From assembly GCA_026709985.1 (NCBI GenBank), contig JAPORY010000114.1:1-64000 (forward strand): a DNA stretch of 64,000 nt, in the 5' to 3' direction. Position numbers and translations under genes: made by a program. How positions within the stretch are numbered: position 1 is the first letter of the stretch; the number at the start of each line of letters is the position of its first letter. The notes below the pieces were generated by a model. That model was not told the origin of the DNA, ran no database searches, and worked only from the letters and a program-made list of their open reading frames with translations. Source of the DNA: Aestuariivita sp. GTDB lineage: Bacteria > Pseudomonadota > Alphaproteobacteria > Rhodobacterales > Rhodobacteraceae. Positions 51,954 through 61,528 of the stretch are shown here, one piece after another.

Positions 51954-52003
51954 GTAATTTTCTGCTGTTTCCGACCATTATGCGGTCTGCACACCTTTTG
52001 TTA

Positions 52004-52025
52004 GAGAATTATATACTTGACGGAC
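52004..52025 (+). repeat. Left terminal inverted repeat, element 1
   Basis: Begins GAGAATTATATACTTG, then GACGGAC. It pairs with 54604-54625, one mismatch in 22. The preceding 8 bases (TTTTGTTA) repeat after the right end. Confidence 0.92.
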
Positions 52026-52071
52026 AGCGTTTGAATCCTTATATTTGAATCACCAAGCAAGGAGATTCGAA

Positions 52072-52962
52072 ATGGCGACAGCACCCGGCAAATCATTTCG
52101 CAAAGGATTGACAATTGTTGACCTGATGGAAATGTTCCCCACCGATGAGGCGGCGCGCAAGTGGTTTGAAGGCATTGTTTGGAAGAATGGCCGTGTTTGC
52201 CCGCATTGCGGTTCGACACACACGATTGAAAACACCAGCGCATCGGAAAACCGGCCGTATCGGTGCCAATCCTGCGGTCAGCATTTCAGCGTTAAGAAGG
52301 GCACAGTCATGCAGGGATCGCCGCTTCCCTATCGCAAGTGGGTGCTGGCGATCTACTTGCACATGACCAGCCTCAAAGGTGTCTCAAGCATGAAGTTGCA
52401 ACGCGATATAGGGGTGACACAAAAGACCGCCTGGTTTATGTTGCAGCGGATCCGGGAAGCGTTCAAGCGTGACGATGACGAGCCGCCAATGAGCGGGCCA
52501 ACGGAGATTGACGAGACCTACATGGGCGGGCGTGAGCGCAACAAGCATAACAGCCAGAAACTCAAGGCAGGGCGTGGGACAGTTGGCAAGACGGCGGTTG
52601 TCGGTGCGAAAGATAGGACCGCCAACGAAGTGCGGGCGCAGGTGGTTCAATCAACTGCGGGAGACACCTTGCGGAAGTTCGCGACCAGCCACGCACAGTT
52701 CGGATCGGTGGTTTACACAGACGACGAGAGGGGTTATACTGGCCTCGCAAGCGCGTTTGATCATGAGAGCGTTTGCCATTCAGCAGGGGAATATGTCCGC
52801 GATATGGCGCGTACCAACGGAATTGAAAGTTTCTGGGCGGTTCTCAAACGGGCGCACAAGGGCGTCTATCACAAGTTCAGCGTCAAGCATTTGCAACGAT
52901 ATGTCACCGACTTCGCCGGGCGTCACAATGTGCGCTCGCTGGACACCATGAGCCAAATGTAA
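52072..52962 (+). CDS. IS1595-family transposase
   Basis: The 296-residue protein has an N-terminal zinc ribbon (CPHC...CQSC with QHFSVKKGTVMQGS) and the ISXO2-like DDE domain. Catalytic landmarks are TEIDETYMGG (first Asp), VVYTDDERGYTGL (second Asp) and RTNGIESFWAVLKRAHKG (third position, N/E type). KGVYHKFSVKHLQRYV is the family C-terminal signature. The ATG at 52072, 7 bp after AAGGAG, is preferred to the longer frame starting at 52045. It lies just inside the left terminal repeat. The frame is intact, so the protein is probably active. Confidence 0.95.
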   Translation: MATAPGKSFRKGLTIVDLMEMFPTDEAARKWFEGIVWKNGRVCPHCGSTHTIENTSASENRPYRCQSCGQHFSVKKGTVMQGSPLPYRKWVLAIYLHMTSLKGVSSMKLQRDIGVTQKTAWFMLQRIREAFKRDDDEPPMSGPTEIDETYMGGRERNKHNSQKLKAGRGTVGKTAVVGAKDRTANEVRAQVVQSTAGDTLRKFATSHAQFGSVVYTDDERGYTGLASAFDHESVCHSAGEYVRDMARTNGIESFWAVLKRAHKGVYHKFSVKHLQRYVTDFAGRHNVRSLDTMSQM

Positions 52963-53061
52963 GCGATTGTGACGGGCATGGTCGGACGGCGATTGACGTA
53001 CAAAATGCTGAAAGCCGATAACGGATTGGCTAGTGGAGCGAGGGCGGTATGAACGTTCCGT

Positions 53062-53325
53062 TTAGTTATCCTCAAGACGGTCAGCTACTTCAATTAATTG
53101 GTGAGCGAGCGACCGTGCTTGTTGAGGACGGAGTGCTATCAGTGTTTCCAGAGCACCGATTGGAGGATCCACCTCTAATCTCTTTGCGACTTTGTCCCGG
53201 TATGGCATTATCCGAAGTAGAATCTCATGTTCAGGATAGTTAACCGGTGAATTTGGATTTTGACTAACAATCGGCTCGAATAGTTGCACGATGAATGTGT
53301 CAGAAAAACTTACCCACGGTTTCAT
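53062..53325 (-). CDS. Small protein overlapping the methyltransferase-HNH gene
   Basis: The 87-residue reading begins MKPWVSFSDTFIVQLFEPI and ends in LAHQLIEVADRLEDN. Its ATG overlaps the methyltransferase stop as ATGA (53322-53325), the signature of coupled translation. It is predicted to be soluble and acidic. I do not recognise the family. Being carried within the transposon with the modification-nuclease gene, it may be an accessory or control protein, but this is inference. An antisense plus-strand frame (53049-53243) is less convincing. Confidence 0.6.
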   Translation of the reverse strand: MKPWVSFSDTFIVQLFEPIVSQNPNSPVNYPEHEILLRIMPYRDKVAKRLEVDPPIGALETLIALRPQQARSLAHQLIEVADRLEDN

Positions 53326-54575
53326 TTCATAGCCCTCCATTCAGCCATTGTTTTTCCTCCCTTGCTTCGGTTGCATCCAGAACAGAGAAGTTGCAGGTTG
53401 TCAGGATGATCGGTTCCCCCGCGTGAGCGCGGTAACATGTGATCCACATCCATGACACGAAAAGGGAAGTGGGTTTGGCAACCCGCGCATATGCCTTCCT
53501 GCTCGCCATAGAGGCGATGGCGGTGCGTTCGGTAATTGGGAATGTCACCAAGATCGGTTCGAATAGGTGGTAAAGTTAAGGCCGTGGCGCCACCAAACAA
53601 ATTGCCGCCAATGTGTTTTCCATACTTTTTTTCTTGAACAGACCGATCGGAATTTATACGATCGTTAACAAGTCTGACAGCCAGATCCGAAAGATCAATT
53701 CCAGCCCATTTTCTCCCTAAACGATCTGCTGCGACACATGCTGTTGCGCAACCGCAGAATGGATCCAGCACCATATCACCTTCATTGCTGGATGCATTGA
53801 TAATGCGGTCGAGGAGCGCAAGGGGCTTCTGGGTGGGGTAGCCTATTCGTTCAGGGGAATTGGAATTAAGTTGTGGCATTGGCCACCAATCTTCTGGAAT
53901 TTTTCCTTTTTCGTTTGGCTTGTATGGAATCAGTGTATCACCTATGCGACGACTTCCCCATCGGGATGCATCTGTACGCCCTTTTCCCTCTCCCTCATAA
54001 GGAACACGGACAGAATCAGCATTAAATGTCAGTATTTTGCCGCTTGCGTATCGCAAAATTATGTCATGCTTTCTGGCAAAATCATTTTTTCCTTTACCAC
54101 CGCCTTTGTAGCACCACACAATTTCATTTTTAAACGCTTTACGCCCCCAAATCGCATCCATAAGCAATTTTAGATAATGCGATGCCGTCGGGTCACAATG
54201 CACATAAATGCTTCCCGTCTCCTTCAACACCCGGTGCATTTCCATGAGCCGCACGGCCATGAAAATGAGATAGGACATCATCCCCTTGCCGTGCGCTTGA
54301 CGTGCGGCCTCAATAACGGAATAGGCAGCGGGATTGCGGTCGGCTAGTTCGCCATGTTCATGGACGTCGACATCGTCCAGCGTCCACATATCTTTGAACG
54401 CGGCACCAGCGGCTTTACTGCCGATCGGGGCCTCGTAAGTGCGATTGGAATTGAAAGGGGGATCCAAGTAAATGAGGTCAACGCAATTTGAGTTCATCCC
54501 CCGAAGGATGGGGAGGTTGTCACCGGTCCAGACGGTGCCAGAAGTAAAGTTGGGGGTTGCCGATTCGTTTGCCAT
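53322..54575 (-). CDS. DNA methyltransferase (N4/N6, beta type) fused to HNH nuclease
   Basis: The 417-residue protein has LIYLDPPFNSNRTY (catalytic motif IV, residues about 34-47) before the SAM-binding motif LDPFCGCATACVAAD (about 270-284): permuted beta-class order, as in PF01555 enzymes. The C-terminal 60 residues form an HNH domain: ICAGCQTHFPF, DVDHMLPRSRGGTDH and LLCSGCNRSKGG (paired CxxC and the HN/H core). It should both methylate and nick/cut DNA. Whether the two activities share a site is unknown. The gene is cargo of element 1, in opposite orientation to the transposase. Confidence 0.92.
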   Translation of the reverse strand: MANESATPNFTSGTVWTGDNLPILRGMNSNCVDLIYLDPPFNSNRTYEAPIGSKAAGAAFKDMWTLDDVDVHEHGELADRNPAAYSVIEAARQAHGKGMMSYLIFMAVRLMEMHRVLKETGSIYVHCDPTASHYLKLLMDAIWGRKAFKNEIVWCYKGGGKGKNDFARKHDIILRYASGKILTFNADSVRVPYEGEGKGRTDASRWGSRRIGDTLIPYKPNEKGKIPEDWWPMPQLNSNSPERIGYPTQKPLALLDRIINASSNEGDMVLDPFCGCATACVAADRLGRKWAGIDLSDLAVRLVNDRINSDRSVQEKKYGKHIGGNLFGGATALTLPPIRTDLGDIPNYRTHRHRLYGEQEGICAGCQTHFPFRVMDVDHMLPRSRGGTDHPDNLQLLCSGCNRSKGGKTMAEWRAMK

Positions 54576-54603
54576 CCGCTACGAATAACAGAAATCAACA
54601 GCG

Positions 54604-54625
54604 TCCGTCAAGTATATAATTCCCT
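54604..54625 (-). repeat. Right terminal inverted repeat, element 1
   Basis: Inverted copy of 52004-52025, reading AGTATATAATTCCC at the tip on the plus strand. The 8 bases after it (54626-54633, TTTTGTTA) equal those before the left end. Confidence 0.92.
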
Positions 54626-54679
54626 TTTGTTAGATTATGCTGGACCGCTCCGATACGCGCCTCAAATCGTCGCAAGCGA

Positions 54680-58776: not shown

Positions 58777-58818
58777 ACTGCCCTCTTTTTGGGAATTATA
58801 TACTTGCAGGACTAACCA

Positions 58819-59990
58819 TTATGCAGCCAATTGAGTATCAATTTCACGGCTCATAGGGGTTTCTAATGAAAACGCCCCTCCCCGTACAGATGCCTCAATC
58901 CCGGCGGCCAAAATATTCTTTGCCGCGTTAATTCCGGCATTCGCAGCGTGTCCACAAGAGACACAACAGAAGTCAACCGGCGATCTACCGTTCCGAACCC
59001 TGGCAGGTTTGAAAAGTATAAGCCGGATTGACTTCGATGGCGTGCGCAACCTTGTAATTGGGCATTTGTTGCACGGATGCCGATCCGGACTTGCGGATCT
59101 CACGATTGAGACCCGCCTTGGCTTGAACGTTGGCCCAGAAGTCGACGCATCGCCTTTGGCTGACTTGGTCATTCCCTGCGCAGGCAACATTTTAAGGATA
59201 ACGGTTCCCGCCCGTGACGCCCAACCCTGACTCACGTCATGGTGCCAGTTCCTCCGAATATCGGCTTGTTTACGCTTGGCTTTTGCGAGCTGGCAAATGG
59301 TTTGCTGACGCCGGTTGCCGGTTTTTTTCGGTCGGGCGGCTTGGCGTTGTAACCGCTTGATCTTACCGTCCAGCTTTGGAACCGTTGGCATCGTGTGAAT
59401 GATGCCACCACTGTCGGCAACTTGCCCAGCGTTGCGATCGAGTCCGATCGCATGATCGGTGTCCAAAGGTTCAATCTCGACCGTGTAGCAGACCGTTGCG
59501 AACCATTTGGAGCCGATACGCTTAAGGACAGCCGAGACCGGCATGCCATTGCGGTAAGGATTTCCACCCTTGCGCCGAATAGTCAGACCGCCAAAACTGC
59601 AGATGTGCAACTGCGTCCCGCGCACCTTGACGTTTTCCGCAATTGCAATACCATGCCAATAATGTCGGCCCTTAAATTTTCGGAAGCCGATGTCCCTGCG
59701 TTGAAAGAAATTCTGATACGCCCGTTCCAGCCGGTTCAGTGTATCGCGCTGGATCGACAAGGGCGTATCAACAAAACCGTCACTATCCGTACGACAAATC
59801 GTGCGGGATTTGCACTGATCAAAATAGGATAAGCCCTTGCCGGTTTTCTGATAACACTCAAGGCGTTCTTGCAGGCTGCATGATACAGCTGGCGTTGATC
59901 TTCAAGCATATTGTTTGGCCACTGCCAAACCGGACGTGTCTGCGGCAAAACACGATAAACAATCTGTCGATGGGTTGTCATTGTTGTCAT
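58819..59990 (-). pseudogene. Decayed TnpB (OrfB-like RNA-guided nuclease)
   Basis: The reading starts MTTMTTHRQIVYRVLP (59990), shifts frame near 59878 to YQKTGKGLSYFDQCKS, then SIQRDTLNRLERAYQNFFQR and FRKFKGRHYW. The RuvC first Asp survives in AIGLDRNAGQVADSG. The second block (usually VED) is missing: GTVILKMLPAQGMTKSAKGD. A stretch NVQAKAGLNREIRKSG and KVAHAIEVNPAYTFQT is out of frame. The zinc-ribbon end retains FCCVSCGHAANAGINAAKN, where the last catalytic Asp is Gly. It ends 13 bp from the left transposon end, so little room remains for an omega-RNA tail. Confidence 0.85.
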
Positions 59991-60026
59991 GCGGTAGCTC
60001 CCGATTTGAGCGTTTATGGACAGAAC

Positions 60027-60110
60027 GGTGAATCCTGTCCTACGCATCTACCCTATTCCTAATAGTCACGTTAATCACCGAAAAAAACGGTTGTTTAGTA
60101 TATAATTCCC
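60027..60110. repeat. Internal copy of the right end of transposon 2
   Basis: GGTGAATCCTGTCCTACG, CATCTACCCTATTCC and TAATAGTCAC run up to AGTATATAATTCCC (60097-60110). The same succession occurs at 61249-61335. The copy just after TnpB may be the original right end of a shorter TnpB element. Confidence 0.85.
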
Positions 60111-60396
60111 TAATGCTTCTTAACCAAACTTCATTTCCTTCGACTTGCGGTGTTAAATGGCGCAGGGCTCGCTCCTTTTTCGCTGTTGCGTCTGAGCCGA
60201 GCCTAGGAAAAAGAGCCATTCTTGTTCCACAGGCTCGACTAACATGAAACGCTTGCGCTTTTTTTCGTAATCTGTATGCTGACGCCAGATTCGTGGCAAT
60301 GCTCGCGGTCTGAACGCCTGCGGGTCGCCGGGCTCAAATCCAGCGTGGTGACTGAAGCAAGTTAATTGCGGCAAATAAAGCGGGCACGATGTATTG

Positions 60397-60642
60397 ATGA
60401 CGGAAGAACGCGACAACGCCATGGCGATTGCCAAGCTGGAAGGTGAGGTCAAAGCACTGGAGGAACGGATGGAAACAAAGCAAGCGGAATATCGCACCGA
60501 CATATCGCATTTAGCAGAAAAGATGGCCGAGCGTGACAAGGAGGCGGCGCAACGCGAAACGCGGCTGATCCTCGCGATTGCCGTGATCGTGGGTGTCGGC
60601 CTTGCGATCTTCGGCTTTCTAACCGCACCGCCCTCGCCCTGA
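60397..60642 (+). CDS. Small coiled-coil, single-membrane-helix protein
   Basis: The 81-residue protein starts at ATG 60397 (MTEERDNAMAIAKLEGEV). A heptad-like charged region (LEERMETKQAEYRTDISHLA) is followed by a C-terminal transmembrane helix LILAIAVIVGVGLAIFGFL and a short tail. It is likely to be a membrane-anchored coiled-coil protein. No family recognised. A second, closely similar copy follows at once. Both are carried in transposon 2. Similar proteins occur with phages and plasmids; this is a guess. Confidence 0.6.
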   Translation: MTEERDNAMAIAKLEGEVKALEERMETKQAEYRTDISHLAEKMAERDKEAAQRETRLILAIAVIVGVGLAIFGFLTAPPSP

Positions 60643-60863
60643 TTGCAGTCCTCGCGATTGCCAAGCTGAAAGGTGAGCTTAAGGCTGTCCGAGCGGAGAC
60701 AAAGGCATTGGAGGAACGAACGGAAACAAAGCAAGCAGAATATCACACCGACATCGCGCGTTTGGCCGAACAATCCGCACATAGAGAAGTACGGTTGATC
60801 TTTGCGATGATCGCCATTGTCGGTGTTGGTGGTCTAACAATTTTCGGATTCTTGACGACCTAA
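60642..60863 (+). pseudogene. Tandem duplicate of the coiled-coil/membrane ORF, no start codon
   Basis: From 60642 the plus strand reads AVLAIAKLKGELKAVRAETK, then ALEERTETKQAEYHTDIARL, AEQSAHREVRLIFAMIA and VGVGGLTIFGFLTT before a TAA at 60861. Every segment has a counterpart in the preceding ORF. It is offset by one base from the stop of the first copy and lacks an ATG or GTG start. It may be expressed by frameshift from the first copy or be dead. Confidence 0.6.
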
Positions 60864-61248
60864 TCAACCACCCCTCAGTGGCTAGCTGGAACTTGGTTCG
60901 CGCGGCGAATGCCTCCAACTCTTAAACTCGCACTTTAAGCGGGATGCGATCAAAGCCGTACGCTTTGATGAACTCGTCGCTGTGACTACGGTGTCCGCTA
61001 CACTTACCATCTCGCAACCACTTAAAATACGTCCACGGGCCCGAAGTGTACCGAATGAGTCACGGAATTTAGAACTAGGCGATTTATACCGACCACTTCA
61101 ACGAGTTTACCCCGAATGGGATGGCCGAATATGGCATAGTTGGGAGCAATTTTCGCCTGCTCTAACTCGACATATTGTGAAAGTATCCGTCGTGACAAGC
61201 CGCAAACAGTCTCAAACGGCTTGGTTTCATTGCTTACAATATAAAAAG
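60864..61248. other. Gene-free stretch inside transposon 2
   Basis: About 385 bp between the duplicated ORFs and the outer right end. I see no convincing frame, hairpin or repeat, apart from the start of the right-end copy at 61249. Confidence 0.4.
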
Positions 61249-61335
61249 GGTGAATCTTGTCTACGCATCTACCCTATTCCTAATAGTCACATCAAACACA
61301 AATGAACCAGTTGGTTAGTCAAGTATATAATTCCC
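61249..61335. repeat. Outer right end of transposon 2
   Basis: Contains GGTGAATCTTGTCTACG, CATCTACCCTATTCC and TAATAGTCAC, ending in CAAGTATATAATTCCC. It repeats 60027-60110 with small changes and is followed by the 8-bp target duplication CTCTTTTT. Confidence 0.85.
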
Positions 61336-61528
61336 CTCTTTTTGCGATCAGCACCATACCTCATTACGACAAGAGAAACAATAAGACCTCTCGTCGGTTG
61401 AGTGGCGTACTCGGTCCAAATCTTGGTTGCTCACACGGTATGGGCGGTGCGACAATACCGCACTCGCGCTGGGTTTTTCGATGCTGAAGCGATAATCTGA
61501 AAGGAAATTTAATCGTCCCGGAACGAGG

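What the first reader, a model, noticed from the sequence alone, without database searches (positions are those of the whole stretch)
58783..61343. Second transposon with the same ends but no matching transposase, carrying a TnpB relic
Element 2 shares the GGGAATTATATACTTG tips with element 1 and has its own perfect 8-bp duplication (CTCTTTTT), yet it encodes no DDE transposase. It contains a decayed TnpB reaching within 13 bp of the left end. TnpB is normally found with IS200/IS605 or IS607 ends. Here an RNA-guided nuclease gene appears as passenger of an inverted-repeat transposon. This points to a non-autonomous element mobilised in trans by an element-1-type transposase.
Basis: partly seen in the sequence, partly recalled or inferred. 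Interest (0 to 1): 0.8.

Follow-up and report, generated by a model that had tools for sequence, protein, structure and literature searches.

The report
RNA-guided nuclease riding DDE-type transposon ends
The window holds a dead copy of a widespread bacterial transposon that carries only a gene for an RNA-guided DNA-cutting enzyme (TnpB) between ends borrowed from a different, cut-and-paste-type transposon family (IS1595), and intact relatives look as if the enzyme protects or spreads the borrowed transposon by cutting DNA that lacks it.

Summary
In detail: element 2 (58791-61335) has perfect GGGAATTATATACTTG tips and a perfect 8-bp duplication (CTCTTTTT), no transposase, and a decayed tnpB ending 28 bp from the left tip. 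Intact relatives exist and settle the main question. A monophyletic TnpB clade (52 rows in the tree, support 100/100; Alpha-/Gammaproteobacteria, Dadabacteria, Rhodothermota/Bacteroidota, Chloroflexota; many from sponge-symbiont MAGs) sits alone in ~1.25-1.5 kb elements with ~20-bp GGGRNTTATRT... inverted repeats; 38 have a 6-8/8 target duplication (24 perfect). Empty sites were aligned for seven of nine Dadabacteria insertions. The same genomes carry IS1595-family transposons with the same kind of ends and 8-bp duplications, none with TnpB. The 3' end of tnpB plus the terminal repeat forms a covarying omega-RNA-like structure ending exactly at the tip. A TAM-like motif (purine, mostly G, then A-rich) is locked to the tnpB-5' edge of the target site in 37/38 TnpB elements (the exception is the window's dead copy) but only 15/30 IS1595 elements. 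Best reading: a TnpB lineage that moved from Y1/serine-recombinase elements to DDE-type ends, moved in trans, with TnpB acting for retention or homing. The window copy itself is a dead composite relic. No activity has been shown.

The parts
58783..58790 (.). left target-site duplication CTCTTTTT
58791..58818 (+). left terminal repeat (tnpB 3' side, RE): GGGAATTATATACTTG + CAGG insertion + ACTAACCA
58791..58920 (-). omega-RNA-like region (tnpB 3' end + tip): tip TCCC (58791-58794) pairs with GGGA (58899-58902); stem 1 at 58883-58886 / 58845-58848; the tip is where a guide would start
   Evidence: alignment and covariation with 42 relatives
58819..59760 (-). decayed tnpB, C-terminal part (RuvC D kept; E->K and last D->G lost)
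59736..60047 (-). decayed tnpB, N-terminal part, other frame
   Evidence: read by eye, no Pfam match
60095..60110 (-). inner, older left end of the original 1.32-kb TnpB unit (GGGAATTATATACTAA, 2 mismatches)
60111..61248 (.). added cargo: repeated coiled-coil/membrane ORFs; 60227-60557 is 92% identical to a copy beside an IS1595-type methylase gene elsewhere in the genome (C68)
61249..61335 (-). outer end (tnpB 5' side, LE): second copy of the subterminal stretch with an intact tip
61336..61343 (.). right target-site duplication CTCTTTTT
52004..54624 (+). element 1: IS1595-family transposon with the same tips, TSD TTTTGTTA (51996-52003, 54625-54632); candidate mobiliser type
52045..52962 (+). 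IS1595-family (ISXO2-like) DDE transposase of element 1
53322..54575 (-). passenger of element 1: N6/N4 DNA methylase with C-terminal HNH domain

Best explanation
Element 2 is a dead, composite member of a lineage of non-autonomous transposons whose only gene is tnpB and whose ends are those of IS1595-family DDE transposons. How intact members probably work: (1) an IS1595-type transposase encoded elsewhere in the cell recognises the GGG...TTATRT inverted repeats and inserts the element into an A/T-rich 8-bp site, which is duplicated (anatomy shown; trans action inferred). (2) The 3' end of the tnpB message plus the terminal repeat is the omega RNA. Its scaffold ends at the transposon tip, the tip TCCC pairing with an invariant GGGA inside tnpB, so the guide is the target duplication plus right flank (structure supported by covariation; processing and guide use inferred). 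(3) Where the target site had a TAM-like motif at the tnpB-5' edge, TnpB can recognise and cut the uninterrupted site in a sister chromosome or incoming DNA, and repair copies the element back (retention/homing; inferred from the position-locked one-sided motif and from known TnpB biology). (4) The window copy lost catalytic residues, captured part of an IS1595-type passenger region by using a second left end, and made its last jump as a 2.5-kb unit.
For: TIR + TSD in relatives, 38 with at least 6/8 and 24 perfect. Empty alleles in other Dadabacteria genomes: contiguous matches for most of the nine sites, seven aligned across the junction. TnpB clade support 100/100; DED and zinc-ribbon Cys in 51/51; PDB match to ISDra2 TnpB 8h1j/8bf8 at about 3e-22; NCBIfam guided_TnpB above cut-off. 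IS1595 transposases in 21/24 host genomes, with matching ends, e.g. L319 transposase element GGGAATTATGTAGCAAAATCTGCA against TnpB element L272 GGGAATTATGTAGCAAAATCTG in the same genome, and 8-bp TSDs. omega-RNA covariation 0.284 against 0.084 shuffled, 0/500, with every slid version lower; stem 1 switches C-G to G-C in 18 of 43 sequences although it is coding. Motif: -1 purine 37/38 TnpB elements against 15/30 transposase elements (Fisher 4e-6; 4e-8 with both control ends pooled); 15/15 away from gene starts; left-only 24, right-only 0. The one exception is the dead window copy.
Against: No transposition, RNA or cleavage was observed. The TAM reading rests on 38 sites of related elements, and the motif varies by clade (G in most, G/A in Dadabacteria and some Gammaproteobacteria). 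Many insertions lie near gene starts, a second source of bias. Some relatives lack a TSD (L121, L208, L123). The tip pairing is invariant, so it has no covariation support. For the window copy itself the mobilising transposase is not identified beyond end similarity.
Confidence: 0.75

Rival explanations
1. tnpB is inert cargo of an IS1595-type element, like the methylase of element 1, and the ends alone matter.
For: IS1595-type elements here carry varied passengers; the window tnpB is dead.
Against: The tnpB-bearing elements are one clade with nothing else inside, all 51 keep RuvC and zinc residues, the omega-RNA-like structure abuts the tip, and the one-sided motif is absent from other IS1595 elements.
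Confidence: 0.12
2. The ends belong to an IS200/IS605- or IS607-type element and the inverted repeats are coincidental.
For: TnpB is usually found there; the proteins match OrfB_IS605 Pfam models.
Against: 8-bp TSDs and ~20-bp inverted repeats in many relatives, empty sites with the 8 bp once. IS607 elements lack both TIRs and TSDs (abstract of PMC6188088); IS605 elements have subterminal hairpins instead (PMC9956272).
Confidence: 0.03
3. The motif at the tnpB-5' edge reflects insertion near translation starts (ATG, Shine-Dalgarno) or an oriented transposase preference, not a TAM.
For: 20 of 38 TnpB elements have a co-directional gene start within 130 bp on the right side against 6 on the left (p 0.009); ATG or AGG often sits at the boundary.
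Against: 15/15 sites far from gene starts also have the purine; the motif is position-locked; transposase elements with the same ends show neither motif (15/30) nor orientation bias (6 against 5).
Confidence: 0.2
4. The clade consists of RNA-guided repressors (TldR-like) that regulate the adjacent gene.
For: Frequent location just upstream of co-directional genes.
Against: Intact RuvC triad in 51/51, and many different insertion sites.
Confidence: 0.05

Closest known systems
TnpB of IS200/IS605 and IS607 elements (e.g. ISDra2)
   Same: Protein fold and RuvC/zinc motifs; guide RNA from the tnpB 3' end running into the flank; TAM expected 5' of the target.
   Different: No Y1 or serine-recombinase partner; DDE-type inverted repeats; 8-bp TSD, so the guide would begin with the TSD; scaffold ends in the terminal repeat.
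Eukaryotic Fanzor1 / Fanzor2* in DDE transposons (PMC3627910, PMC10711439)
   Same: RNA-guided nuclease captured by TIR/TSD transposons, often non-autonomous; TIR becomes part of the guide-RNA scaffold.
   Different: Bacterial; partner is IS1595-type; TSD is variable in sequence, so it probably serves as guide rather than fixed scaffold.
IS1595 family with passenger genes (element 1; eukaryotic counterpart Merlin, PMC8101967)
   Same: GG-starting inverted repeats and 8-bp TSD; resident transposons carry passengers such as methylases.
   Different: The TnpB elements have no transposase and are ~1.3 kb.
IS1341-type solo tnpB elements
   Same: tnpB alone, thought to be moved in trans (own knowledge).
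   Different: Those carry IS200/605-type ends, not DDE-type inverted repeats with TSD (own knowledge).

Membership tests
IS1595 family | DDE_Tnp_IS1595 transposase encoded in the element | tested here: not met
   absent from element 2 and from the TnpB relatives; present in element 1. So element 2 is at most a non-autonomous derivative.
IS1595 family | terminal inverted repeats starting GG | tested here: met
IS1595 family | 8-bp target duplication | tested here: met
IS1595 family | moved by an IS1595 transposase | not testable with these tools
   inferred from matching ends in the same genome
IS200/IS605 | Y1 transposase, subterminal hairpins, no TSD | tested here: not met
   8-bp TSD and inverted repeats; no second gene in ~1.3-kb relatives
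TnpB RNA-guided nuclease | TnpB domains and RuvC D-E-D | tested here: met
   relatives met; the window copy has lost E and the last D
TnpB RNA-guided nuclease | guide-RNA scaffold at the tnpB 3' end, ending at the element edge | tested here: met
   covariation; structure only, no expression data; no Rfam family matched
TnpB RNA-guided nuclease | TAM 5' of the target | tested here: inconclusive
   motif present 37/38, not assayed
TnpB RNA-guided nuclease | guided DNA cleavage | not testable with these tools
   needs experiment

The most novel reading that the evidence does not exclude
A bacterial TnpB lineage has switched from Y1/serine recombinases to DDE (IS1595-type) transposons across several phyla. 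The transposon tip doubles as the 3' end of the guide-RNA scaffold, the guide starts with the 8-bp target duplication, and insertions persist only where a TAM abuts that duplication: RNA-guided homing of a cut-and-paste-type element that does not encode its own transposase.
Probability: 0.6. Interest if true: 0.85.

Novelty: new variant of a known kind. Interest (0 to 1): 0.74.

Why it matters
In the literature searched here, bacterial TnpB is tied to Y1 or serine-recombinase elements, while capture by DDE transposons is described for eukaryotic Fanzors. An independent bacterial case would show that RNA-guided retention is not tied to one transposition chemistry. It would also explain how a guide RNA copes with a variable target duplication, and it gives compact TnpBs with a predicted RNA boundary and TAM. 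The one-sided motif makes the retention hypothesis testable from genome data alone.

Tried and rejected
Plasmid DNA search with element 2: no match; plasmid protein search found only distant conventional TnpBs. Rfam: none in the relatives tested. Order-level search: only distant TnpBs; the class-level search gave the first intact relatives. No TnpB was found in the transposase-bearing elements, so no element carrying both genes was seen. Treating 58791-60110 as a complete recent insertion was rejected: no TSD at 60110. Literature searches for TnpB with IS1595, ISXO2 or DDE terms found no report of the pairing, but the library is open-access only. Structure prediction was not run because sequence matches to solved TnpB are full length.

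Full report
What is there. The window has two transposons with shared tips. Element 1 (52004-54624) is an IS1595-family transposon with a transposase and a methylase-HNH passenger. Element 2 (58791-61335) has exact GGGAATTATATACTTG tips, a perfect 8-bp duplication and no transposase. Its tnpB is split between frames and has lost two catalytic residues, but it is clearly homologous to the family described below (E 5.6e-74).

Composite structure. A third tip at 60095-60110 and a ~90-bp subterminal duplication show that the basic unit is 58791-60110, 1320 bp, the usual length of the relatives. The segment 60111-61248 contains repeated coiled-coil/membrane ORFs. Part of it is 92% identical to DNA elsewhere in the genome that lies beside an IS1595-type methylase gene, so it is probably a captured piece of another IS1595-type element. 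The outer ends carry the duplication, so the whole 2545 bp moved as one.

Intact relatives. Order-level search found only distant TnpBs; class-level search found genomes G652, G366, G575 and G561 with the closest TnpBs, full-length and directly between inverted repeats in G652 and G366. A genome-wide scan gave 80 loci. In most, tnpB is the only gene of a ~1.25-1.5 kb element with ~20-bp GGGRNTTATRT... repeats and its stop codon within about 35 bp of the tip; 38 elements (window copy included) have a TSD of at least 6/8, 24 of them perfect. Nine Dadabacteria insertion sites, joined without the element, were searched in seven Dadabacteria genomes and gave many contiguous matches. Seven of the nine sites were aligned across the junction, two of them in two genomes, and are uninterrupted.

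Phylogeny. 52 rows, including one viral contig (L277) whose ends I could not define, form one clade with 100/100 support, apart from conventional TnpBs. All 51 family members checked keep the RuvC triad and zinc cysteines. They exceed the curated cut-offs of the TnpB models and match solved ISDra2 TnpB.

Partner transposase. IS1595 transposases occur in 21 of 24 host genomes (1 of 14 unrelated control genomes). Most of those whose surroundings were fetched lie in 2-4.7 kb elements with the same kind of tips and perfect 8-bp TSDs. None of those searched contains TnpB. In one genome (G694) the transposase element L319 and the TnpB element L272 have nearly identical repeats.

Guide RNA. The last 130 nt before the tip align across the clade. 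Stem 1 switches between C-G and G-C in step although both strands are coding (His/Asp and Glu/Gln codons), and stems 2 and 3 also covary. The covariation score is 0.284 against 0.084 in shuffles (0/500) and below 0.15 for every slid version. RNAalifold pairs the tip TCCC with an invariant GGGA upstream. This has no covariation but resembles the pseudoknot described for TnpB guide RNAs (PMC10097598). The guide would start at the tip, that is, with the 8-bp duplication. In ISDra2 about 12 TAM-proximal bases are needed for cutting. The left copy of the duplication matches a guide for only about 8 bases, so self-cutting would be avoided (inference).

TAM-like motif. In tnpB orientation the base before the duplication is a purine in 37 of 38 elements (27 G), followed by A-rich positions 1-3. 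The mirror position on the right side shows nothing: 24 elements have the purine on the left only, none on the right only. Transposase-bearing elements from the same or related genomes with the same type of ends: 15 of 30. Away from gene starts: 15 of 15. The single exception is the window copy, whose tnpB is dead; this fits, but a single case is weak. A symmetric transposase does not explain a one-sided motif, while TnpB does.

Genomic position. TnpB elements tend to lie 5' of co-directional genes (20 against 6; transposase controls 6 against 5; the difference between the two sets is not significant on its own, Fisher p 0.24). In L215, L220, L234, L238 and L239 they sit at a start codon and the right end offers an in-frame ATG. 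I treat this as a lead only.

Shown and inferred. Shown by sequence: anatomy, TSDs, empty sites, clade, conserved catalytic residues, covarying RNA structure, one-sided motif, resident IS1595 elements. Inferred: mobilisation in trans, RNA processing, cleavage, retention/homing.

Known background. TnpB retention and gene drive are described for IS200/605 (PMC11870625). Fanzor capture by eukaryotic DDE transposons, with TIR and TSD in the RNA scaffold, is described in PMC3627910 and PMC10711439. I found no report of the bacterial IS1595 pairing, within an open-access library.

Noticed in passing
own genome C109:2006-3249 (L058) and C11:28746-31124 (L045): Two further transposase-less elements with the same tips and perfect 8-bp TSDs (TTAAAAAA; CTATAATA), carrying unknown membrane or unknown ORFs: IS1595-type cargo carriers.
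   Followed up: partly
own genome C7:15888 (L043:10889): An element end sharing 28 bp, including the CAGG insertion, with the right end of element 2; the contig ends before its other end.
   Followed up: partly
window 60394-60863 and ~20 places in the own genome: Short coiled-coil plus membrane-helix ORF present as many diverged copies genome-wide, one beside an IS1595-type methylase gene; function unknown.
   Followed up: partly
own genome, 21 IS1595 transposase matches: Heavy load of IS1595 copies, most of them broken: a decaying expansion.
   Followed up: no
L215, L220, L234, L238, L239 right ends: Insertion at the start codon of a host gene (adenylate kinase-like in L215) with an in-frame ATG overlapping or next to the tnpB stop, which could restart the host gene.
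   Followed up: partly
L319, L320, L324, L326, L338, L340, L341, L343, L345, L357: IS1595-type transposons repeatedly carry DNA methylase-like passenger genes, like element 1.
   Followed up: partly
L277 (viral contig IMGVR_UViG_3300009881_000001): A clade member on a viral contig with the conserved RNA stem but no recognised terminal repeat.
   Followed up: partly
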